Shown here piece after piece: positions 2,137 through 12,388 of a stretch of DNA of 64,000 nucleotides. The stretch's first letter is position 1. Every line of letters starts with the position of its first letter. A program made the translations under genes and the position numbers. This DNA comes from Sphingomonas rosea (GTDB lineage: Bacteria > Pseudomonadota > Alphaproteobacteria > Sphingomonadales > Sphingomonadaceae). The notes under the pieces are model-generated. The model saw only the letters and a list, made by a program, of their open reading frames with translations, was not told the origin of the DNA and ran no database searches. The stretch lies in the NCBI RefSeq assembly GCF_039538065.1, contig NZ_BAABBR010000001.1:1526501-1590500 (forward strand), in the 5' to 3' direction.

Positions 2137-2769
2137 TCAAATCTCAGTCGCTTCGGAAAGCGCCAAAGCGTCTTCGACTTCTACGCCAAGGTATCGAACC
2201 GTCGTCTCGATCTTGGTATGCCCGAGCAAGATCTGCACTGCGCGCAGGTTACCTGTCTGCTTGTAGATCAGGGCTGCCTTCGTTCGCCGGAGTGAATGAG
2301 TGCCGTAGTCCTCTCGACGAAGTCCAATCGCCGTCACCCACTCGTCGACCAGACGAGCGTATTGCCGAGTGCTCATATGTGAAAGCCGGTCAACACGGCT
2401 GGGAAAGACATACTCGTCGAGCGAGCCACCGCGCCGCTCAAGCCACTGGAGCAGGCTCGTGCGAGCGGGCTCCAGAAGTTCGAACTGCACCGGACGGCCG
2501 GTCTTCTGCTGGACGATTATTGCTCGCTGGCGGATGCGGGCTCCGCTTACCAGCTCATCGATCTTGATCTTAACGAGGTCGCATCCGCGAAGCTTGCTGT
2601 CGATCGCTAGGTCGAAGAGGGCGCGATCGCGAAGGCGGTGTTCCTGCTCCAGGAAAAAGCGCACGGCCCAGACCTGCTTGGGTAGAAGCGGGCGCTTCGC
2701 ACCGAGCTTTCGGCCAACATTCCACGCGGGACGGTCTTCCTGACCGGGATCGTAGATTGCATGTCCCAT
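2137..2769 (-). CDS. Short tyrosine-type recombinase/integrase
   Basis: A 210-aa tyrosine recombinase consisting almost only of the catalytic domain; full phage integrases are usually 350-450 aa with an N-terminal arm-binding domain. The active-site set is visible: Arg61 (KLRG), Lys89 (QQKTGR), His158 and Arg161 (THSLRR), His184 (LLGHTK) and the nucleophile Tyr193 (VRYLG). The start is backed by GAGGAG seven bases upstream. The gene is the first of the accessory block and reads toward the autotransporter gene. Short stand-alone recombinases of this kind occur widely in alphaproteobacterial islands. Whether it mobilises this block is inference, because no matching attachment repeat was found. 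Confidence 0.88.
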   Translation of the reverse strand: MGHAIYDPGQEDRPAWNVGRKLGAKRPLLPKQVWAVRFFLEQEHRLRDRALFDLAIDSKLRGCDLVKIKIDELVSGARIRQRAIIVQQKTGRPVQFELLEPARTSLLQWLERRGGSLDEYVFPSRVDRLSHMSTRQYARLVDEWVTAIGLRREDYGTHSLRRTKAALIYKQTGNLRAVQILLGHTKIETTVRYLGVEVEDALALSEATEI

Positions 2770-2990
2770 GCTTCATCTCCTCAGGCCAACAGCGGCCGAG
2801 GAGAAAACGAACTAAGAGGCTGTGCATGGTGCGAAGTGGGATGGCGGGCTCTAGGCGCTCGAAGGCAGACAGCAGACATTCGCCAGTGAGAAGTACGACG
2901 CCATGGATGATCAGCGACGGCTTACCTTTGAAGAGATACCTCGCTCAGGCCTCAACTGACTTGTAGACTATGCGTAAGAGGAAACTGGTC

Positions 2991-3275
2991 ATGAGAAAGC
3001 ATACGGGCAAGACACCCTCCGAGGTTCGAATCGCACTTCGTCTGCCAACCGACACGTTAGCTCTCATCGACCAGGCCGCAGCAGCGCTGGGCAAGTCACG
3101 CTCCGAGTTTATTCTCGATAGCGTGCGACCCCGGTCGATCGACGCAGTTCTCGACCAACGCGTGTTCGAGCTTGATGAAGTGCAGACAGCTCACTTCCTA
3201 GATGTCATGACGACCCCCCCGAAAGCTAACCAGGCACTCAAAGCTCTGATGCACAAGCGGCCTATTTGGGATTGA
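2991..3275 (+). CDS. DUF1778 family antitoxin (TacA-like), orphan
   Basis: A 94-aa protein starting MRKHTGK. An ATG 21 bases upstream is in frame, but AAGAGGAAA sits about 7 bases before the ATG at 2991, which favours this start. Residues ~9-45 form a ribbon-helix-helix segment (RIALRLPTDTLALIDQAA, then GKSRSEFIL), followed by a C-terminal toxin-binding tail ending MHKRPIWD. DUF1778 antitoxins normally repress their own operon and neutralise a downstream GNAT acetyltransferase toxin that acylates charged tRNA. Here no GNAT gene follows: the next 170 bases hold no coding frame and then run into a convergent gene. It is therefore a solitary antitoxin or the remnant of a TA pair. Confidence 0.85.
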   Translation: MRKHTGKTPSEVRIALRLPTDTLALIDQAAAALGKSRSEFILDSVRPRSIDAVLDQRVFELDEVQTAHFLDVMTTPPKANQALKALMHKRPIWD

Positions 3276-3444: not shown

Positions 3445-4431
3445 TCAGCTCGTCGTACCTGACCACCTGACGCAGGAGATGTGATCTTCGCCCCGTGAGT
3501 AATAGTGACACTTGTTGGCATTGCGGCAGCCGTCATGCGGCTCAGCCAAAAAGGCGGGGTTGGCGATAAGGTCGCGGCAGATGCCCAAATGAGCGTTAGT
3601 GGGAAGGGCGGCGGCATTGGCGCTAGCCCGTCCCGAGACGATGAATGACCGCTTCGGATGCCGAACTGCGACTGCAACGCTCTCAAGGTGCCGCGCGAGA
3701 AGGATCTCGGGTCTGGCCGGATATATGAGGCGCTTGTCGATGTTATAGAAGCCGGAGGAAAGGTCGATGAAGTCGAACGGCAGTCCGCAGAGAAGATCCT
3801 GCGCACGCTCGGCGCCCTCCTCATCGAACGCGCTGTGGCCGGTGCGCAGCGATATCCGCAGGGAACTTTCAATGCCCTGAGATCGCAACCAGTCAGCCAA
3901 GCTAGCTAGCTCGTCACGCACGTATGCCGCGTGCGGATTGAGCCGATCATCGACTAACAAGCTAAGCAGATAGCCGTGAGCGGCATGTATCTGAACATGG
4001 CGGAAGCCATGTCCGATCGCCAAGGTTCCACCTGTGCGGAACGCCTCCGTGAGACGGGCAAGGTCGGCACGACTATGCTGGTGGACCAAAGATCGGGCCT
4101 GATCGAGAACCTGGTCTCCATTGGTGGTCAGGAACTTGCGGGCTCCCTGATATCCCTTCCAGGCGGTCGCGAGCTGCACGCCGGGATTCGAACCGGCATC
4201 CGAGATGGCAGCGGCCACGCGCCCCCAGACTGGACTGCTGCCGATAGTTGGCGTGGATCGATTGCTACCATACCCGCCGGGCACAACGACGTTGCCGACG
4301 ATGGCGCAGTACAGGTTGGACGAACTTCGCTCCCGGTAGAAATCGACGTAGCGGCAATCGGGGTCGCCTTCCGTGACGAAGCCGGTGTTCACTCCCAGGA
4401 AGAAGACCCGCCTATCGCTCAAGCCCGCCAT
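3445..4431 (-). CDS. Old-yellow-enzyme-like NADH:flavin oxidoreductase
   Basis: About 328 aa from the chosen ATG (MAGLSDRR); in-frame ATGs also lie at 4440, 4443 and 4488. The protein has the TIM-barrel pattern of FMN-dependent Old Yellow Enzymes: a VQLATAW strand where the family has QL-x-HAGR, the strong motif VQIHAAHGYLLS, a RISL strand, FIDLSSGFYN, and a late ICRDLIANPAFL segment for FMN phosphate binding. A Cys cluster (DGCRNANKC, then HISC) resembles the iron-sulfur region of the 2,4-dienoyl-CoA reductase branch but has three Cys, not four. It overlaps the end of the MazG-like gene by about 20 bases, so it is the third gene of a coupled minus-strand cassette. The substrate is unknown. 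Confidence 0.75.
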   Translation of the reverse strand: MAGLSDRRVFFLGVNTGFVTEGDPDCRYVDFYRERSSSNLYCAIVGNVVVPGGYGSNRSTPTIGSSPVWGRVAAAISDAGSNPGVQLATAWKGYQGARKFLTTNGDQVLDQARSLVHQHSRADLARLTEAFRTGGTLAIGHGFRHVQIHAAHGYLLSLLVDDRLNPHAAYVRDELASLADWLRSQGIESSLRISLRTGHSAFDEEGAERAQDLLCGLPFDFIDLSSGFYNIDKRLIYPARPEILLARHLESVAVAVRHPKRSFIVSGRASANAAALPTNAHLGICRDLIANPAFLAEPHDGCRNANKCHYYSRGEDHISCVRWSGTTS

Positions 4432-4765
4432 AGCGATCATCATTCTGGGCCATTTTGGTGAGGATGTCCTGCTCAAGGTCCCCACCAAGAATGGTCGAAA
4501 TCCGGAAAAGATAGATGGCAGCGTCGGCCACTTCCTCGCGTAGATGGGCAGCCACCTCGTCCAGCCTAGGGCCGTGATAGCGCGGATTGGTAAAACTCAG
4601 CCCCACCTTCTTCAGCTGATTGGCGAACTCGCCGATCTCGCCAACTAAGCCAACCAGTTCCCGCGACAGCTGATCATGGCGCTCAGCGTCGGATGAAAAG
4701 GTTACGCTGAAGCCTCGACGCTCGTCGGCGGCAATCTGGCGTCTCACGATGGAAGAAAAGTCCAC
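4412..4765 (-). CDS. MazG-like nucleotide pyrophosphohydrolase
   Basis: A 117-aa all-alpha NTP pyrophosphohydrolase starting at a GTG (VDFSSIV). The start is set by GCGGAGGAA upstream and by a TAGTG overlap with the stop codon of the preceding gene, indicating translational coupling. The metal-binding pattern of the fold is visible: ELVGLVGEIGEFANQL (E-x-x-E helix) and LREEVADAAIYLFRI (E-E-x-x-D helix). The family hydrolyses (d)NTPs to monophosphate and pyrophosphate. Being fused operonically to a dCTP-deaminase-like protein suggests a role in nucleotide sensing or depletion, which is inference. A reading frame continues upstream of the GTG, but it lies within the neighbouring gene and shows no family similarity. 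Confidence 0.8.
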   Translation of the reverse strand: MDFSSIVRRQIAADERRGFSVTFSSDAERHDQLSRELVGLVGEIGEFANQLKKVGLSFTNPRYHGPRLDEVAAHLREEVADAAIYLFRISTILGGDLEQDILTKMAQNDDRYGGLER

Positions 4766-5541
4766 TAGCCATTCCTCCGCACGAAATTCAGAAGCAACGA
4801 CCCGACCGCGATGATGGCTGCGGCCACGAGACTGGTCGCGACACCAGTCAGACCCTCGATCAGCTTGTTTTGCACCAGAAAGATCGCCAGCGAGTTGATA
4901 ATGATGGCGATCACGAGACCAATGTTGGTCCATTGCTGATTGATCTCAAGGCGCCGGATCACGGATCGGGTTGCCTTTGGCAGCAGCGCCAGGCTTTCCT
5001 GTTTCTCGGACTGCACGCGTGGATCATCGGTGACCTGCGCATGGGTTTTCTGCAGATGTGTCTTGATTGGCCAAATGCCCATCTGAAAGCCGTGCTGCCC
5101 AGCATAGAGCCGGGTTGCTGCGCCGCTAAGTCGGCAGAATTCGGCTTTAGCGATAGGCTCTCCTTGCGGCAGCTCAATATATTTGTCGCTGATGTTCTGG
5201 GTGACAATCCCAAGATTGCCGCTGAACCCGGGGTCAGCATAGGTTGCAACCGCGCTTAGACCTACACTGAATAGGGAACCCTTACTAACAACTTTCACCG
5301 ATACGTTGGACGGTGTCTCGAGCTCTTCAGCAGTAATTAGCACAACTCGGTGCCCTGGCTTAATCAACGCGTGCTGACCGGGCTGAAGCTCAATGCGCGC
5401 ACCATCTTCCGTAAGATCATAATAAACGTCGCCAAGGCGGAGCTCGTAGCACGCACCATTCAAGCGATTTAGGTCAGCGTTTCTGACCAATCGCCCCGCT
5501 ACGATCTCAGCTTCGATGTCATTGTCGTTCAGAACTGCCAT
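4765..5541 (-). CDS. Membrane-anchored dCTP deaminase/dUTPase-fold protein with degenerate active site
   Basis: 258 aa, start ATG preceded by GAGGGG. Residues 1-146 align well with bacterial dCTP deaminase: NDNDIEAEIVAGRL at the N-terminus, LNGACYELRLG, then YADPGFSGNLGIVTQN and the closing LPQGEPIAKAEF. Compared with the E. coli enzyme as I recall it, the catalytic Glu138 position is Val113, Ser111 is Gly88 and Arg115 is Ser92 (SKGSLFSVGL instead of GRSSLARLGL), so deaminase activity is doubtful. After a ~50-aa linker, two hydrophobic helices (about 206-224 and 232-254) precede a basic tail, a hairpin membrane anchor unusual for this family. It is first in a cassette with the MazG-like and OYE-like genes. 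A membrane-bound nucleotide sensor is the most plausible reading. Confidence 0.78.
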   Translation of the reverse strand: MAVLNDNDIEAEIVAGRLVRNADLNRLNGACYELRLGDVYYDLTEDGARIELQPGQHALIKPGHRVVLITAEELETPSNVSVKVVSKGSLFSVGLSAVATYADPGFSGNLGIVTQNISDKYIELPQGEPIAKAEFCRLSGAATRLYAGQHGFQMGIWPIKTHLQKTHAQVTDDPRVQSEKQESLALLPKATRSVIRRLEINQQWTNIGLVIAIIINSLAIFLVQNKLIEGLTGVATSLVAAAIIAVGSLLLNFVRRNG

Positions 5542-6006
5542 GTTGCCCCTCGAATTTCAGCGGCAACCTCGTTCGCCGCGCAAACCCCGTCGCCTCTGCG
5601 TGTTGCTGGTGGCGCCGTTTGCAATGCTACGTCAGGCGAGATTGCACCGAATAGACACGAGCTTGTGACCTTGTTCGCTCACCGGTGGCAAGTGCCGAAG
5701 GCGAAGCTGCAGCCGTAAGATCGACTGCGGACACAGCAGTGCTACCGCAATGCGGATCGCACTGCTCGAGACTAGGGTGTGAAGACACTTGCGCTCGAAA
5801 AATCTGCATCGACACTTACCGCCGAGCTGGACGAAATTCGGCATTCTTATGAGAGCCGAAGCAGTTGCCGCTTAAGCACAGGGCTGTAGGTTCTCGATCT
5901 TCCCCGCCGCCGCCGAGGTGCAACTAAGGCTAAACTTCTTGTCGCCAACCTCTGCTGACCATAACGATCACGGTTAAGGCGGCGAGTGCTAGATGAGGCG
6001 GGCAGT
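5542..6006. other. 465-bp divergent intergenic region
   Basis: This gap separates the minus-strand dCTP-deaminase-like cassette from the plus-strand ATPase operon, so it should hold promoters for both. Short minus-strand frames at 5627-5844 lack family similarity and a convincing ribosome site. A GAGG at about 5994 precedes the chosen ATPase start at 6007. I see no repeat or recognisable operator. Confidence 0.5.
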
Positions 6007-7371
6007 ATGACGGTGCCGGGTAAGGAAAAGGCTGTTGCGTATCCGACTAAGGCCTTCTTCGTGCGCATGATCACCCGCGACATCAGTCTCGAGGACTGCA
6101 TTTTGGACTTGATCGACAACAGCGTCGACGGCGCCTGGAGCCAGGAAGGCAGTCGGCCAATGGGGTTGGCCGACGGCGCCGATCTGTCCAGCTACAGGAT
6201 CGAGATCGAGGCGGGACCGGAAGCATTCGTCATCAGGGACAACTGCGGTGGCATGACGCTGGACGCCGCCGCCGATCACGCCTTCAGCTTCGGTCGCAGC
6301 TCGCTCTCAGAGCACGACGAGTACAGCATCGGGGTCTATGGCATCGGCATGAAGCGCGCCGTGTTCAAGTTGGGCTCGGAAATTCGGGTGCGCAGCACCT
6401 TCACCAGTGAGGACGGCAACCGAATGTCGTTCGCGGTCCCGATCAACGTCATCGACTGGCTCGGGAGCGACGCCCCGCCGTGGGACTTCGATATCGTGGA
6501 CGACGATCCGCTCGATGCCGACGGAGTCGAGATCGTCGTGAGGTCGTTAACTCAAGGCTCGTCCACCTCCTTCTCCAGCCCGGCTTTCCTGCAGAACCTG
6601 AAGCGTACGATCGCACGGGACTATTCCTTCCATCTACTGCGGGGTCTCCGCATCTTTCTCAATGGCGAACCCGTTACGGGGTGGGCCATCGAACTGCGGC
6701 AAAGCGACGAGTTCGTACCGGTCCGCATGGAATACGAGGACGAAGTGGAGGGCCAGCCGGTCTCGATCGAGATCATCGGCGGCATGGCCGCGCCACCGCC
6801 AGAGAGCATCGATCCGGACGAGAGTGAGGAAGGCGACCGTCGCTACGGATGGTACGTCGTCTGCAACGGCCGCATTGTACTGGCCGCCGACAAGTCGCAA
6901 ATCACGGGCTGGGGAACCGAGGGGTGGCCTCAGTGGCATTACCAGTACGCTGGCTTTATCGGTATTATCTTCTTCACTGCCGCCAAGGCGTCTGCCCTCC
7001 CGCTCACCACCACAAAGAGGAGCGTAGACACTTCGTCGGAGGTGTACCGCCGCGCTCGACCCAGGATGCGCGAAGTATCCAAGTCCTGGATCTCGTATAC
7101 GAACCAGCGCAAGCAGGCCCTCGAAGAAGCCAGGCGAAAAGAGAACGCCGCGGTCGCCGTTCCGCTCGCCGCGGTCGCCTCCCGCAGCGCTGTCACTCTC
7201 CCGACGCTTGTTCCAAAGCCGGTCGAGAAGCCGGCCAACATCAATTACTCGGTACCGGTAACCCGCATGAAGAAGATGGCCAAAGCGCTCGGCAGCATCA
7301 ACATGCCGTATCGTGAGGTCGGGCTGAAGACGTTCGACTACGCCTACGACGACCTCGTTGGAGACGATTGA
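6007..7371 (+). CDS. GHKL (MutL/MORC-like) ATPase of a restriction-type operon
   Basis: 454 aa from ATG 6007 (MTVPGKEK), favoured over a GTG at 5986 because GAGG lies 8 bases before it. The Bergerat ATP-binding motifs are clear: the N box CILDLIDNSVDGA with Asn38 for Mg and Asp34 where MutL has its catalytic Glu; the G1 box VIRDNCGGM; and the G2 box SIGVYGIGMKRAVF. A second domain follows (about 210-380), then a charged linker rich in Arg, Glu and Ala (about 360-390). GHKL ATPases of this type cycle as ATP-driven clamps and are known in prokaryotic restriction-modification-like operons. The next gene starts inside its stop codon (TGATG), and a C5-methyltransferase and Vsr nuclease follow, which supports that role. 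Confidence 0.85.
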   Translation: MTVPGKEKAVAYPTKAFFVRMITRDISLEDCILDLIDNSVDGAWSQEGSRPMGLADGADLSSYRIEIEAGPEAFVIRDNCGGMTLDAAADHAFSFGRSSLSEHDEYSIGVYGIGMKRAVFKLGSEIRVRSTFTSEDGNRMSFAVPINVIDWLGSDAPPWDFDIVDDDPLDADGVEIVVRSLTQGSSTSFSSPAFLQNLKRTIARDYSFHLLRGLRIFLNGEPVTGWAIELRQSDEFVPVRMEYEDEVEGQPVSIEIIGGMAAPPPESIDPDESEEGDRRYGWYVVCNGRIVLAADKSQITGWGTEGWPQWHYQYAGFIGIIFFTAAKASALPLTTTKRSVDTSSEVYRRARPRMREVSKSWISYTNQRKQALEEARRKENAAVAVPLAAVASRSAVTLPTLVPKPVEKPANINYSVPVTRMKKMAKALGSINMPYREVGLKTFDYAYDDLVGDD

Positions 7372-8315
7372 TGGCGTCCTTCGATGTGGTCAATTATAGT
7401 CTGCGCCCGAGCAAAAGCATCCAGCGGCAGCTCGTCTTCGAAGGTGTGAAGAAGCTCCAGGCGCAGCTAGATCTCGACCGCTTGGTGTACGTCGGGTTCG
7501 GCTCGATCTGGTTCACCGACTTCGTTCTCGCGCACAAGCTGCTGGGCGTCGACGACATGGTTTCAATTGAAAGCAACGAAGTCGGCTATCGGCGCGCCGT
7601 CTTCAACTCGCCTTATGCGACTGTTCGTGTCCGGCACGGTTTCTCGTCGGCGGTCCTGCCGTCCCTCTACGAGGACGAAATCGTCCGTGGGCGACCTTGG
7701 CTGGTGTGGCTGGACTACGATAAGGAGTTCAACGCCGACCTGAAGGAGGACGTCGTCGCCCTGGTCGAGAACGCACCGACCAACAGCATCCTTCTCGTGA
7801 CCTTCAATGGAAACGAGATGAAGTACGACAAGGCTCCCGAACGCCCCGAGCATCTTAAGCGGCTCTTCGGCTCCGTGGTCCCGGACGACCTGCCGACCAG
7901 GGCATGCAAAGACGATCGGATGCAGGAAACGCTAGCCGACTTCTCGCTTCAGATGATGCAGTCTGTCGCCGCGGATCTCGCCAGGCCTGGCGGCTTCGTG
8001 CCCGCATTCCGTCTTATTTATCGCGATGTCGCTCCGATGGTCACCGTGGGAGGCGTCCTTCCGGCAAGAGGGGCGGCCCGGATCGCTTCCGAGGTCGTCC
8101 GGGCTGCCGATTGGCCTTGCCGGCCCCAAAAACCCATCGTGGCGCCGCATCTCACGGTGCGGGAGGCGGCTTCGCTTCAGAGCAGATTGCCTTGTGTCGG
8201 CCGCCTGGAGCGTGCGGACGTGCAGGCACTCGGCTTCGACTTGGAAGACGACCAGCTAGAAGCTTTTCAGGCCTACTACCGGCATTACCCGGCCTATGCA
8301 CAGATTGTGGCATGA
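7371..8315 (+). CDS. Methyltransferase-like (Rossmann) component of the GHKL-Dcm-Vsr operon
   Basis: 314 aa beginning at the ATG that overlaps the ATPase stop codon; a TTG one codon earlier is possible but less likely. Residues 39-51 (VYVGFGSIWFTDF) resemble the glycine-rich motif I of class I SAM-dependent methyltransferases. SIESNE (65-70) fits the acidic ribose-binding loop, and WLDYDKEF (113-120) and SILLVTFNGNEMKYD fit later strands. No DNA-methylase catalytic motif (PCQ, NPPY, DPPY) is present, so the substrate is unknown; O-methyltransferase-like is a structural description only. The tight coupling suggests that it works with the ATPase, perhaps as a specificity or signalling partner, which is inference. 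Confidence 0.6.
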   Translation: MASFDVVNYSLRPSKSIQRQLVFEGVKKLQAQLDLDRLVYVGFGSIWFTDFVLAHKLLGVDDMVSIESNEVGYRRAVFNSPYATVRVRHGFSSAVLPSLYEDEIVRGRPWLVWLDYDKEFNADLKEDVVALVENAPTNSILLVTFNGNEMKYDKAPERPEHLKRLFGSVVPDDLPTRACKDDRMQETLADFSLQMMQSVAADLARPGGFVPAFRLIYRDVAPMVTVGGVLPARGAARIASEVVRAADWPCRPQKPIVAPHLTVREAASLQSRLPCVGRLERADVQALGFDLEDDQLEAFQAYYRHYPAYAQIVA

Positions 8316-8391
8316 GGCGACCGAAGCTCACCGTCGAGTTCGGAGCCGAACCACGGTCGACATATCGACGTCTGGCCGTAGCAGCTCTGCC

Positions 8392-9471
8392 ATGAAGCTT
8401 GTCGATTTGTTCTGCGGATGTGGCGGATTCTCGCTTGGTGCGCATCAAGCGGGGTTCGAAGTCGTCTCGGCCTACGACATTGACCCGAATCTGACTCACT
8501 CCTTCGAGCGGAACTTCCCCAACACGCGGCTCCATCTTAAAGACGTGTCACGGCTGACGGGGGCGCAACTGCTGCTCTCCGCCGGTGGGCAGATCGACGG
8601 TATCTTCGGTGGTCCACCTTGTCAGGGCTTCAGCGACATCGGGCGACGGGCGGTCGACGATCCCCGCCGCCAGCTTCTGGGACACTTCTTCCGCCTGGTA
8701 GCCGAGGTGCGTCCGACATTCTTTATAATGGAGAACGTCCGCGGCCTCGCTCAGTCCGGCGCTCGCCAAGTTCTCGAGGACGCGCTCAAGTTGGTGCGGG
8801 ATCGATATCAACTCCTCGGCCCGATGGTCTTGGACGCAGCCGACTTCGGTGCTCCTACTAAGCGCCGCCGCCTGTTCGTCATCGGCTTGCATAAGGACCG
8901 CTCGGACCCGCTGCAGGCGGACGACGTACTCGCCGGAAGACGGCGCGCCGCGACGGTGCGGGACGCGCTGACCGATCTGATCGGAGCCGTTCGGGTCGGC
9001 GACGAAGAAGGTTACGACGTTTGGCGCTTCGGTCGTCGTGGTCGGCCGAGCGCATATGCACAGGCGATGCGCAGCATTGATCGCCGCTTCACGGGCAATC
9101 GGCTCACAGTCCACGCGCCAGTCATCGCCGAGCGCTTTGCCAAGCTCGACCCCGGCGCCATCGATCCCGTTGGTCGTCACCCGAAACTCGCCTGGGAGGG
9201 GCAATGCCCCACGCTCCGCGCCGGGACCGGCGCCGATCGGGGCTCCTATCAGGCCGTAAGGCCAATCCATCCCGGCGAGCCACGAGTGATCACGGTGAGG
9301 GAAGCAGCCCGCCTACAGGGCTTTCCCGACGCTCACCGCTTTCATCCTACTCTCTGGCACAGCTTCCGGATGATCGGGAACAGCGTGTCCCCGGTAATCG
9401 CCAGGGAGCTGTTTGTAGCGATCGCCAAGAAGCTCACCTTCGACCCGCGTGTCACGCTAGCGGCCGAGTGA
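8392..9471 (+). CDS. DNA (cytosine-5) methyltransferase
   Basis: 359 aa from ATG 8392, where the protein starts with motif I (MKLVDLFCGCGGFSLG) as is typical; an in-frame ATG at 8296 would add 32 unrelated residues overlapping the previous gene. All key motifs are seen: motif IV GGPPCQGFSD with catalytic Cys77, motif VI MENVRG (Glu114), motif VIII APTKRRRLFVIG, motif IX RAGTGADRGSYQ and motif X MIGNSVSP. The target-recognition region between VIII and IX is short (~120 aa), so one recognition site is likely, but it cannot be read from the sequence. The enzyme would protect host DNA in this operon, paired with the Vsr-type nuclease that follows directly. Confidence 0.95.
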   Translation: MKLVDLFCGCGGFSLGAHQAGFEVVSAYDIDPNLTHSFERNFPNTRLHLKDVSRLTGAQLLLSAGGQIDGIFGGPPCQGFSDIGRRAVDDPRRQLLGHFFRLVAEVRPTFFIMENVRGLAQSGARQVLEDALKLVRDRYQLLGPMVLDAADFGAPTKRRRLFVIGLHKDRSDPLQADDVLAGRRRAATVRDALTDLIGAVRVGDEEGYDVWRFGRRGRPSAYAQAMRSIDRRFTGNRLTVHAPVIAERFAKLDPGAIDPVGRHPKLAWEGQCPTLRAGTGADRGSYQAVRPIHPGEPRVITVREAARLQGFPDAHRFHPTLWHSFRMIGNSVSPVIARELFVAIAKKLTFDPRVTLAAE

Positions 9472-9888
9472 ATGGATCGGCTTACCCCCGAGCGCCGCTC
9501 GAGGCTGATGTCCCGTGTGCCACAAAAGAACACCTCGCCCGAGTTGCGGGTGCGACGAGCGGCACACGCGTTGGGACTGCGGTTTCGTATCCACCGCCGG
9601 AATCTGCCGGGCACGCCGGACCTCGTATTCCCTAAGTACAAGGTCGCCATATTCGTGCACGGCTGCTTTTGGCATCGTCATCCAGGCTGCCCCAAGGCAT
9701 CGGTCCCGAAGACGCGGCAAGAGTTTTGGGAAGCCAAGTTCGCCCGGAATGTCGAGCGCGACCGGCACGTGGATGCGCAGTTGAGCGCTCGAGGGTGGCG
9801 CGTTTGTAAGCTCTGGGAGTGCGAAACCAAGGACGAGCAAACCTTACGGGAACGGCTAGTGCGTATATTCGGCCTAGGAGTTTTTTAG
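9472..9888 (+). CDS. vsr: Very-short-patch-repair (Vsr) family endonuclease
   Basis: 138 aa whose ATG follows the methyltransferase TGA without a gap. Vsr hallmarks are in order: MSRVPQKNTSPELRVRRA at the N-terminus, GTPDLVFPKYKVAIFVHGCFW (51-67 region) with catalytic Asp50 and His63/His68, metal-binding Cys/His in HPGC, and KFARNVERD near 90. In Dcm systems Vsr nicks T:G mismatches arising from deamination of 5-methylcytosine. In operons with GHKL ATPases, Vsr-fold enzymes have also been proposed to be the cutting component. No other nuclease is present in this operon, so the second role should be considered. Confidence 0.93.
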   Translation: MDRLTPERRSRLMSRVPQKNTSPELRVRRAAHALGLRFRIHRRNLPGTPDLVFPKYKVAIFVHGCFWHRHPGCPKASVPKTRQEFWEAKFARNVERDRHVDAQLSARGWRVCKLWECETKDEQTLRERLVRIFGLGVF

Positions 9889-10402: not shown

Positions 10403-10957
10403 CTACTTGAACTCCACGCCCATCTTCTGCTGCGCCTCCTTGGTGTAGTAAGATAGCGGTCCATTCGGCTGCGTGGAGAGATCGAACCGGCGGATCGCTG
10501 TGTCGATCACCTTCTGCTTGAAGGGGATGTGGATAGCGCAGACAGACTTGTCGTCGATGCGCTTTGTTAGTGCAGCTGGCCATTCATGCCGATGTGACGC
10601 CGGGTTCAGAATGGAAGTGTAGCCAGTATAAACGACGATCACCGGGATGCCGCATACGTCTACTGCGTACTCTATCTCATGTGGGACGAAGTCAGTGTCA
10701 AGGTGGGTCTTCGGACCAACTATTAGCACCATGTTCTTAGAGTTATCGAGACGATCCTCCAGACTCTGCTTTATCTTAGACTTGCTAGCGCTGTCTTTGA
10801 CCGCTTCCACCTTGTCATGGCTATTGATAAACTTGAAGTCGATATCGTCGTTCTCATGCCAGGCCTTCATCATGCGATAGTATCTGATGTCAGACGCGGT
10901 GGGGTCTGTCTTACCTTCAGCGTGGAAGGCGATGTAAGTTCCGTTACGATAGGCCAT
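10403..10957 (-). CDS. thsB: Thoeris ThsB-like TIR protein (DUF1863/MTH538 type)
   Basis: 184 aa. The pattern matches the TIR-like fold of Thoeris ThsB proteins: an opening strand TYIAFHAEGKTD, RYYRMMKAWHENDDIDFKFI, SKIKQSLEDRLDNSKNMVLIVG, and a helix PHEIEYAVDVCGIPVIVVYTG. Glu94 lies at the position of the catalytic glutamate used for NAD+ cleavage in TIR enzymes. ThsB proteins detect phage and make a nucleotide signal that activates ThsA. The ATG is 2 bases after the thsA stop, so it is the last gene of the three-gene locus. It represents a second TIR lineage beside the DUF1883-TIR protein, as seen in Thoeris loci with several ThsB sensors. Confidence 0.82.
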   Translation of the reverse strand: MAYRNGTYIAFHAEGKTDPTASDIRYYRMMKAWHENDDIDFKFINSHDKVEAVKDSASKSKIKQSLEDRLDNSKNMVLIVGPKTHLDTDFVPHEIEYAVDVCGIPVIVVYTGYTSILNPASHRHEWPAALTKRIDDKSVCAIHIPFKQKVIDTAIRRFDLSTQPNGPLSYYTKEAQQKMGVEFK

Positions 10958-10958
10958 A

Positions 10959-11810
10959 CTACTTAGTACTCCAGTCTCTTCGTATCTCCGTCAGATCAAG
11001 AACCGAGAAGCAATCTTCGTGCAGCAAGATGCTAACGCTGTTCGGGAGCTGTGCGGTCTTAGCGTAATCAACGATTGCCAGTACCACTAGCCTGAGGAGA
11101 TGCTGAGGCGGCAGGTTGATGCTGGCGCGACCGTTGCCCAGAAGAGGCAGCGCTAAGGGCTGGCCATTGCCCCGCTCATGAACCTTGCAAAGAGCAGCAG
11201 AAAGGGCTGTCCAAAGCTCGGGGATGCTAGACTGAGCCTTGTTCGTACTGACGTCGGTGCGAGACAAAGCGACGAGGTAGATGTGCTTGTCACCACGGTC
11301 CAAAACTGCGGTGGTGCCAATCTCGTAACGTGTCGTCTCCCCTACGGTCCTTGGAATGGTGGTGCCGGTAAACGGCTGCAGCGCTGGTGTGACCTGCGTC
11401 CTGAACTTAGCTTCATCGCCGCCGAAGTAGTCGCAGATAACCTGGCCATGAATGGAGCCCTTCGCGACAACGTCGCCGATGCGGCTGTCGAAGAACTCGT
11501 TCACGCCAATGAGCCAATCGGCATCCTCCTTGAACAGATTGCCATACTTCAGGGTCAGCCGAGTACTCGTTAGCGGGATGTCGAAGGCTACCTTGCGGGG
11601 TTCGTAGATCGCCCACAGGAATCCGACCAAAGCGCAGAAAATCGCAAATCCAAGATAAGGCGTGCCGTGCTCGTCCAGCCAATGGTCAAGCCCAGCACTT
11701 GAGCGGGTGCCGACCTCCGTGAGGAGCCAGATCGCTCCCAGCACTGCTAGGCCGAACGCAACGCCTTCTTGCCACCGCCGAGAGGCGCCGAGGCGTATGG
11801 ACTTCCACAT
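10959..11810 (-). CDS. thsA: Type II Thoeris effector ThsA (two TM helices plus macro domain)
   Basis: 283 aa from an ATG overlapping the TIR stop codon (TGATG); a TTG one codon earlier also exists. Two transmembrane helices lie at about 16-34 (GVAFGLAVLGAIWLLTEV) and 52-70 (YLGFAIFCALVGFLWAIY). The remaining ~200 residues form the ThsA-type macro domain: LTLKYGNLFKEDADWLIGVN, a stretch naming small ligand loops (GSIHGQV), ALPLLGNGRASINLP and a C-terminal LLHEDCFSVLDL. In type II Thoeris this effector binds the TIR product (reported as histidine-ADP-ribose) through the macro domain and damages the membrane, causing abortive infection. The identification rests on domain order and on its two TIR neighbours. 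Confidence 0.85.
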   Translation of the reverse strand: MWKSIRLGASRRWQEGVAFGLAVLGAIWLLTEVGTRSSAGLDHWLDEHGTPYLGFAIFCALVGFLWAIYEPRKVAFDIPLTSTRLTLKYGNLFKEDADWLIGVNEFFDSRIGDVVAKGSIHGQVICDYFGGDEAKFRTQVTPALQPFTGTTIPRTVGETTRYEIGTTAVLDRGDKHIYLVALSRTDVSTNKAQSSIPELWTALSAALCKVHERGNGQPLALPLLGNGRASINLPPQHLLRLVVLAIVDYAKTAQLPNSVSILLHEDCFSVLDLTEIRRDWSTK

Positions 11811-12388
11811 CAACCTTGGTCCCCGATGACCTCGATAATCTCGGCAGCTATCTCTTCAACCGTATGAGTGGAAGTGCTACGGGCAAGCTTGTCTGCAAGC
11901 GACGACGAGTATTGCATTACCTCTCTCTTGGACACGTTGTGCCAGACAGGCAGAAGCACCTGCTCGCCTGAAACCGATCGAGAGACCAAGCCGTCCAGTT
12001 CATACTCGGGCCAGCCCTTGCCAAAGAAGGCTTGAGACAGCACGACAACGCCAAATCGGCTGCTTCGCAGACCCTCATCGATTTTGCGACGTAGGCTGTC
12101 GCCAATCTTCAGCGTGAACTCATCGTACCAAACGTCGAGGCCACCGGCTCGCAGCGCCTCTGCGAGAGGGCGCGCAACCTCATCTTTGTCTTCGGAAGCG
12201 TGCGATATGAAGACGTCATGAGTAGCGCTGCTGGGCTCATCAAGACTTGGCGGCGTGTTGTCAGCAGCCGGCCGGACGAGAGAGGGCACCGTCGACAAGG
12301 GCGCCTCATTTAAGGCTGGCAGCGGACGCATCGCCGAGGGCGGTATCACCCGTACGCTACTCCTAGTCGTGCCCCTGAGCCCCTGCAT
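11810..12388 (-). CDS. TIR domain protein, C-terminal part of a frameshifted DUF1883-TIR (ThsB-like) gene
   Basis: 192 aa if started at the Met of MQGLRGTTRSS. A Pro/Ser-rich linker (about 15-56) leads to a canonical TIR domain: HDVFISHASEDKDEVARPL, GLDVWYDEFTLKIGDSLRR, RFGVVVLSQAFFGKGWPEYE with catalytic Glu130, and LPVWHNVSKREV. Such TIRs cleave NAD+ and act as ThsB in Thoeris. The first dozen residues are the end of a DUF1883 domain whose beginning is in another frame just upstream (12390-12605), so the annotated start is probably internal. Reading the two frames together would give one protein of about 265 aa. If the shift is real, only this fragment, an unusual start or ribosomal slippage could supply the TIR. 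Confidence 0.8.
   Translation of the reverse strand: MQGLRGTTRSSVRVIPPSAMRPLPALNEAPLSTVPSLVRPAADNTPPSLDEPSSATHDVFISHASEDKDEVARPLAEALRAGGLDVWYDEFTLKIGDSLRRKIDEGLRSSRFGVVVLSQAFFGKGWPEYELDGLVSRSVSGEQVLLPVWHNVSKREVMQYSSSLADKLARSTSTHTVEEIAAEIIEVIGDQG

What the first reader, a model, noticed from the sequence alone, without database searches (positions are those of the whole stretch)
4412..5541. Cassette of degenerate membrane dCTP-deaminase-like protein and coupled MazG-like enzyme
The deaminase-fold protein appears to have lost all three catalytic residues I recall for the E. coli enzyme (Glu138 to Val113, Ser111 to Gly88, Arg115 to Ser92) and has two C-terminal membrane helices. It overlaps by TAGTG with an intact MazG-type pyrophosphohydrolase. 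A membrane-bound nucleotide-binding sensor paired with an NTP-cleaving effector would be a new arrangement, distinct from known phage-defence dCTP deaminases, which keep their catalytic residues.
Basis: partly seen in the sequence, partly recalled or inferred. Interest (0 to 1): 0.85.

Follow-up and report, generated by a model that had tools for sequence, protein, structure and literature searches.

The report
Membrane nucleotide-binding operon in defence island
The two genes are part of a rare, mobile operon that couples a membrane-tethered, apparently non-deaminating relative of dCTP deaminase to a dCTP-cleaving-type enzyme and, most constantly, to a flavin enzyme; here it sits among phage-defence genes, and its function has not been tested.

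Summary
Window 5541-4765 (-) encodes a dCTP-deaminase-fold protein that lacks the S111/R115/E138 equivalents (G88/S92/V113) and ends in two hydrophobic helices. It overlaps by TAGTG a MazG-type gene (4765-4412) with intact ExxE...ExxD. DCD and flavin genes occur in the same 2 of 396 genomes of the order and the same 5 of 72,556 plasmids; none of the three window proteins hits any of 50,697 phage records.

MazG is fused to the DCD once and replaced by a Nudix hydrolase once. Thymidylate kinase, deoxynucleoside kinase or 5'-nucleotidase genes are sometimes appended, and two distant DCD relatives pair with a flavin reductase. MazG's best solved match is dCTP pyrophosphatase 1.

Best reading: an uncatalogued, probably anti-phage, pyrimidine-nucleotide-processing system built on a non-deaminating membrane nucleotide binder. 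Composition and linkage are shown; ligand, chemistry and defence are inferred.

The parts
4765..5541 (-). membrane-anchored dCTP-deaminase-like protein, 258 aa (stop TAG 4765-4767)
   Evidence: PF22769 E 6.8e-13; model pLDDT 84; 694 homologues E<=1e-3, 120 of them listed
5266..5280 (-). codons of G88-S92, where E. coli DCD has S111...R115
   Evidence: alignment; conservation
5203..5205 (-). codon of V113, where E. coli DCD has Glu138
   Evidence: alignment
4873..4929 (-). first C-terminal hydrophobic helix, residues 205-223
   Evidence: Kyte-Doolittle 2.33; helix in model
4789..4845 (-). second C-terminal hydrophobic helix, residues 233-251
   Evidence: Kyte-Doolittle 2.25; helix in model
4763..4767 (-). 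TAGTG overlap of DCD stop and MazG GTG start
   Evidence: sequence
4412..4765 (-). MazG/DCTPP1-type all-alpha NTP pyrophosphohydrolase, 117 aa, ExxE...ExxD intact
   Evidence: profile match to dCTP pyrophosphatase 1 6sqw E 8.5e-11; residues 50/50
3445..4440 (-). OYE-superfamily flavin oxidoreductase with C-x5-C-x11-C tail; ATG 4440 (alternative 4431), overlaps MazG by about 29 nt
   Evidence: profile match YqjM 1z41 E 1.7e-31; model pLDDT 92; 619 homologues E<=1e-3, 120 of them listed

Best explanation
It is a mobile accessory operon that processes a pyrimidine (deoxy)nucleotide, most likely dCTP or a dCTP analogue, and most likely serves anti-phage defence. SHOWN: a DCD-fold protein with a hydrophobic two-helix tail and without the deaminase residues is genetically linked to an OYE-type flavin oxidoreductase and usually to a DCTPP1-type MazG. 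INFERRED: the DCD-like protein binds the nucleotide at the membrane and acts as sensor or scaffold; MazG (or Nudix) turns the triphosphate into the monophosphate; the flavin enzyme reduces or otherwise changes the base; optional kinases or nucleotidases carry the product onward. The result would be a changed or depleted pyrimidine pool that stops phage DNA synthesis.
For: Linkage: flavin gene linked in 30 of 34 loci, MazG adjacent or fused in 23 of 34 (L019 settled). Of the 34 carrier genomes 30 hold the flavin subfamily (>=215 bits); besides pieces of those same genes in G399 and G392, nothing else exceeds 100 bits. The same 2 of 396 genomes carry both genes. In plasmids DCD, flavin and MazG hit the same 5, 5 and 4 of 72,556 records, the missing MazG being frameshifted. 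Matched divergence: DCD vs flavin r 0.91 (34 loci), DCD vs MazG r 0.92 (28 loci), 0 of 2000 permutations each. Nucleotide theme: DCTPP1 as MazG's best solved match; DCD-MazG fusion and Nudix replacement; thymidylate kinase beside the operon in L015, L017/L018, L025, L029, L030, with another copy elsewhere in 6 of 7 genomes checked; dNK in L027; 5'-nucleotidase 12 nt downstream in L014. Flavin theme: positions aligned with flavin and active-site residues invariant in 120 of 120; two distant DCD relatives sit beside Flavin_Reduct (L033, L035). Defence setting: Thoeris and Dcm genes in the window, a Vsr-like gene by eye; Gabija GajA beside L040; 360 PADLOC models hit among 145 neighbours against 47 among 127 control genes.
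Against: No assay. MazG is missing in 11 of 34 loci and the flavin gene in 4 (L027, L033, L034, L035), so no step is universal. In L007 and L009 the flavin reading frame is broken. The PADLOC contrast counts models, not genes: one methylase hits dozens, and the control also hits helicase and mad2 models. Of 20 neighbours scanned singly, 9 had no PADLOC hit. Priestia copies lie beside DNA-repair genes, which would also fit nucleotide sanitation. A divergent family member (L029) does hit 9 virus records, several annotated dCTP deaminase or dUTPase, at about 26-31% identity over at most 59%, so the fold itself is not foreign to viruses. Substrate specificity cannot be read from the MazG fold.
Confidence: 0.5

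Rival explanations
1. Simple dCTP-depletion defence: the membrane DCD-like protein senses infection through nucleotide binding and switches on MazG, which empties the dCTP pool; the flavin enzyme is a regulator or redox sensor.
For: DCTPP1-type MazG, fusion in L016, defence island.
Against: MazG is absent from 11 of 34 loci, and in 7 of those 11 the flavin gene stays; added kinases would refill pools.
Confidence: 0.2
2. Housekeeping-like sanitation: the operon removes damaged or unusual pyrimidine nucleotides (oxidised, environmental or modified) and is accessory metabolism, not defence.
For: MazG, Nudix, 5'-nucleotidase and kinases all fit clean-up; Priestia copies beside a damage-repair gene.
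Against: Rare and patchy (2 of 396 in the order, 1 of 385 in the class), found on plasmids, in a low-GC stretch here (0.589 vs 0.668); membrane tail unexplained.
Confidence: 0.2
3. Nucleotide-gated membrane effector: the DCD-like oligomer with two helices per subunit opens or disrupts the membrane when it binds a nucleotide made or changed by the other enzymes, as Cap1 does with cA4.
For: Ligand-type fold plus two hydrophobic segments in 118 of 120; precedent Cap1, CARF-like plus TM1/2 (abstract seen).
Against: L016 has no such helices and carries MazG instead, though it is one MAG; the helix sequences are less conserved than the DCD core.
Confidence: 0.15
4. The DCD-like protein is still an enzyme with another reaction, for example dUTPase-like hydrolysis using the invariant D103.
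For: D103 120/120, K87 120/120, GQHG tail motif nearly invariant; similarity to dUTPases.
Against: Equivalents of S111, R115, E138 lost; the resemblance of D103 to the dUTPase Asp is recalled, not tested.
Confidence: 0.15

Closest known systems
dCTP deaminase Dcd (TIGR02274, PF22769)
   Same: Fold and core motifs; aligned over residues 3-150.
   Different: 56.3 bits against a 92.8 cutoff; three active-site residues replaced in the family members examined; C-terminal two-helix tail.
dCTP pyrophosphatase 1 (DCTPP1/RS21-C6), all-alpha MazG superfamily
   Same: Best solved match of the MazG partner, metal motif ExxE...ExxD intact. DCTPP1 is described as having high affinity for dCTP and modified dCTP derivatives (PMC7162842, start of abstract in search listing).
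   Different: Bacterial, operon-encoded; specificity unknown.
Old Yellow Enzyme class of YqjM (PF00724), and Fe-S relatives such as 2,4-dienoyl-CoA reductase
   Same: Barrel-type model, invariant Q86, H149, H152, Y154, R192, R286; Cys tail resembles the Fe-S motif of dienoyl-CoA reductase/TMADH (recalled).
   Different: Second Cys of the motif variable (position 305: H 62, R 21, S 11, Y 7, K 6 and others); single domain; no unlinked copy found in the genomes and plasmids searched.
Defence dCTP deaminases / dGTPases that deplete dNTPs (Tal et al., Hsueh et al. 2022; recalled)
   Same: Would act on the same pool.
   Different: As recalled, they are zinc-type cytidine deaminases; no PADLOC model hits any of the three proteins.
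Two-helix ligand-gated effectors such as Cap1 (PMC12642688, abstract)
   Same: Nucleotide-binding domain joined to two TM helices.
   Different: Different ligand fold; no signal-making enzyme identified here.

Membership tests
dCTP deaminase (catalytic) | equivalents of S111, R115, E138 | tested here: not met
   G88/S92/V113; (catalytic role of these residues recalled)
dCTP deaminase (catalytic) | NCBIfam equivalog score >= 92.8 | tested here: not met
   56.3 bits
DCD/dUTPase fold superfamily | Pfam PF22769 over cutoff and predicted fold | tested here: met
   49.4 bits vs 27; model; a structural comparison could not be run
MazG/DCTPP1 all-alpha pyrophosphohydrolase | ExxE...ExxD metal site | tested here: met
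   E43, E46, E78, D81 50/50
MazG/DCTPP1 all-alpha pyrophosphohydrolase | Pfam PF12643 over cutoff | tested here: not met
   15.4 bits vs 27; profile against DCTPP1 structure E 8.5e-11
DCTPP1 | cleaves dCTP | not testable with these tools
   needs assay
OYE flavin oxidoreductase | flavin-binding and HxxH(N) active-site positions | tested here: met
   120/120, alignment to YqjM; residue roles recalled
OYE flavin oxidoreductase | Pfam PF00724 over cutoff | tested here: inconclusive
   window protein 22.9 vs 27; most of the 120 listed homologues carry PF00724 in the database
Fe-S OYE (dienoyl-CoA reductase/TMADH type) | four-Cys cluster motif | tested here: inconclusive
   three Cys invariant, fourth variable
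Anti-phage defence system | lies in defence islands | tested here: met
   window; other loci: where enrichment is counted by models only and 9 of 20 single neighbours had no hit
Anti-phage defence system | protects against phage | not testable with these tools
   needs plating
Catalogued defence system (PADLOC 2023) | model hit | tested here: not met
   0 families at E<=1 for all three proteins

The most novel reading that the evidence does not exclude
The operon builds an antiviral nucleotide: MazG or Nudix frees a pyrimidine monophosphate, the flavin enzyme reduces or otherwise modifies the base, and a thymidylate-kinase-type enzyme (own or host) recharges it to a triphosphate that poisons phage polymerases, while the membrane DCD-like protein presents or senses the dNTP. 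This would be a flavin-based counterpart of viperin.
Probability: 0.12. Interest if true: 0.95.

Novelty: new variant of a known kind. Interest (0 to 1): 0.72.

Why it matters
If it is defence, it adds flavin redox chemistry to nucleotide-pool immunity and shows a DCD-fold protein turned from an enzyme into a membrane-bound nucleotide binder. The close DCD-flavin linkage, with MazG, Nudix and kinases as interchangeable modules, gives a direct way to test what substrate passes between the partners. It would also give a candidate function to a family now unnamed or labelled 'dCTP deaminase' in databases (694 homologues at E<=1e-3, of which the 120 listed were examined and 118 have the two-helix tail; the unlisted ones may include ordinary deaminases).

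Tried and rejected
Rejected: 'two-gene pair' (third gene more constant). Rejected: phage auxiliary gene (no match in 50,697 phage records for each of the three window proteins at E 1e-5; 3 loci in IMG/VR; but a divergent member hits 9 virus records weakly). Rejected: PADLOC-listed system. Tried without result: more DCD-MazG fusions in 384 genomes of the class of L016 (only L016's own genome); a sigma-70-type promoter (0 found; the scan covers only that type); four distant plasmid relatives for shared partners (one record unannotated, none with the flavin gene listed).

Literature: searches of the held open-access library for dCTP deaminase + MazG + transmembrane + anti-phage, old yellow enzyme + MazG + dCTP deaminase (20) and dCTP deaminase + MazG + flavin (36) gave 0 papers; dCTP deaminase + Glu138/Ser111 gave 0 (88). 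Listings (15 of 20 papers shown; 15 of 68; 10 of 202; 6 of 6; 12 of 73; 7 of 8) show titles and abstract starts only; none of those describes this operon. DefensePredictor (PMC13092281): section 8 and found passages read; it names MazG and dUTPase as unvalidated predicted defence domains; 'flavin', 'oxidoreductase' and 'deaminase' occur 0 times in its main text; its supplement was not looked at (no look-ups allowed). 'Not in print' means only these searches.

Biases: the 34 loci were fetched with the patterns TYADPGFxG and [VI]VSKG[SA]LFS, so invariance of those columns is partly built in; the 120 homologues were not so chosen but are close (58% or more identical). Dropped before counts: L007, L009, L034 from the DCD-flavin correlation, which included window, viral and plasmid loci; L001, L019, L034, L043 and genes under 110 aa from the neighbour set. 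Control genes come from 19 stretches of the same genomes; a 20th (L064) fell out at the residue cap. The 20 neighbours scanned singly were chosen by hand, mostly long ones: 11 of 20 hit PADLOC at 1e-8.

Full report
What is there. On the minus strand three genes overlap: 5541-4765 (DCD-like, 258 aa), 4765-4412 (MazG type, GTG start inside TAGTG) and 4440-3445 (flavin oxidoreductase). Pfam calls the first DCD above cutoff, the second and third only below their cutoffs. Profiles of their families are clearer: MazG matches dCTP pyrophosphatase 1 (E 8.5e-11), and the third matches YqjM and other OYE enzymes (E 1.7e-31). AlphaFold gives mean pLDDT 84 for the DCD protein and 92 for the flavin protein.

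Is the DCD protein degenerate? Against E. coli DCD, S111, R115 and E138 fall on G88, S92 and V113. This is not decay of one copy. K87, G88, D103 and other positions are 120 of 120 among the closest homologues, position 113 is V or I in all 120, and 118 of 120 have two C-terminal hydrophobic segments. Among 47 rows (44 distinct) from many phyla no E is found at position 113 (the patterns used to fetch these loci bias some columns, see Tried and rejected). So it is a conserved subfamily under its own constraint: I infer that deamination is unlikely and ligand binding likely. Two more distant plasmid relatives also have C-terminal hydrophobic helices and lie near uracil-DNA glycosylase or beside dUTPase genes (L065, L066).

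Who are its partners? In 34 genome loci from Pseudomonadota, Myxococcota, Desulfobacterota, Actinomycetota, Bacillota, Bacteroidota, Planctomycetota, Verrucomicrobiota and Nitrospinota (phylum names from the record titles), the flavin gene is linked in 30 and missing in L027, L033, L034 (a truncated 132-aa DCD frame) and L035. MazG is adjacent or fused in 23 (L016 fused; L023 after the flavin gene and of the PF03819 type); 11 lack it. L019 counts among the 30 and 23 because its contig of 19,545 bases carries the rest of the operon at its other end. In 7 of the 11 loci without MazG the flavin gene remains (L015, L017, L018, L021, L025, L031, L032). In L007 and L009 the flavin frame is broken, and in L031 the order is reversed.

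Presence tests agree. In the class, the own genome alone of 385 has either above threshold, except three flavin-profile hits at 106-115 bits in frames of 650-748 aa. In plasmids the same 5 of 72,556 records hold DCD and flavin genes, and 4 of these hold MazG. Distances between loci match across genes, although shared organism history contributes to this.

What are the swaps? L021 has Nudix in MazG's place; L027 has a deoxynucleoside kinase downstream; L033 and L035, two of the most distant, have Flavin_Reduct genes 2 nt downstream of or overlapping the DCD gene. Thymidylate kinase genes lie within 121 nt of the operon in L015, L017, L018, L025, L029 and L030, with further copies 1-3 kb away in L012 and L014. 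Six of seven such genomes checked have another thymidylate kinase elsewhere; the Pedobacter draft shows only the linked one. L014 also has a 5'-nucleotidase 12 nt downstream of the flavin gene. These swaps keep two activities, cleavage of a nucleotide diphosphate bond and flavin redox chemistry, around the DCD-like protein.

Flavin protein. Q86, H149, H152, Y154, R192 and R286, which align with flavin and active-site positions of YqjM (roles recalled), are 120 of 120. N15, near the place of the redox-tuning cysteine of YqjM (recalled), is 120 of 120. C302, C308, C320 and H309 are 120 of 120, with position 305 variable; some distant members have a fourth Cys there. This looks like an Fe-S or zinc site, not proved.

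Setting. The window copy lies in a lower-GC stretch (0.589 vs 0.668) between a tyrosine integrase and a serine recombinase (by eye). With it are a Thoeris set (ThsB, macro ThsA, TIR), a cytosine methylase, a GHKL ATPase with a PF20553 protein and a Vsr-like gene (by eye). Elsewhere: Gabija GajA beside L040, a type I methylase beside L024, a type IIG-like gene near L013, CARF6 proteins at L002 and L003. Pooled, 145 neighbours hit 360 PADLOC models and 127 control genes from 19 stretches of the same genomes hit 47. The number of proteins behind these models is not given by the tool, so I treat this as supportive only; singly, 11 of 20 hand-picked neighbours had a hit.

Mechanism and standing. 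I commit to a pyrimidine-nucleotide-processing defence module (0.5), with dCTP depletion, sanitation, a gated membrane effector, and retained DCD catalysis as rivals; these overlap in part, so the odds are not meant to sum to one. What it works like (nucleotide-pool immunity) and what it is (a member of no catalogued system tested) are kept apart. The parts belong to known folds; the combination was not found in PADLOC or in the paper searches listed. Hence 'new variant of a known kind'.

Noticed in passing
window 10403-12388 (-): Thoeris-type operon: ThsB TIR-like, macro-domain ThsA and a second TIR protein.
   Followed up: partly
window 5986-9888 (+): GHKL ATPase, PF20553 putative methyltransferase, Dcm-type cytosine methylase and a Vsr-like gene (by eye) in a row, divergent from the operon; may be one system.
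   Followed up: no
L003 4850-8888, L008 10177-15111, L010 2294-6317, L039 10610-15412: Recurrent neighbour set in 4 loci: CARF6-like protein, ORC-CDC6-like ATPase (PF24389), a third protein annotated metallophosphoesterase in L039, in L008 and L039 with a Dam-type methylase.
   Followed up: partly
L065 4971-5705; L066 4965-6038: Other DCD-like proteins with C-terminal hydrophobic helices, near uracil-DNA glycosylase or beside dUTPase genes.
   Followed up: partly
L016 7998-8930: Single protein fusing the DCD-like domain to MazG without hydrophobic helices (one MAG).
   Followed up: yes
L041 10774-11128: MazG of the Priestia B1 plasmid is frameshifted while its relative L042 is intact.
   Followed up: yes
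L019 and L070: Operon runs over the two ends of one 19.5-kb contig, as on a circular element.
   Followed up: partly
window 2137-2769 (-) and 2970-3275 (+): Short tyrosine integrase (210 aa) and a small ORF that looks by eye like a ribbon-helix-helix protein at the island edge.
   Followed up: no
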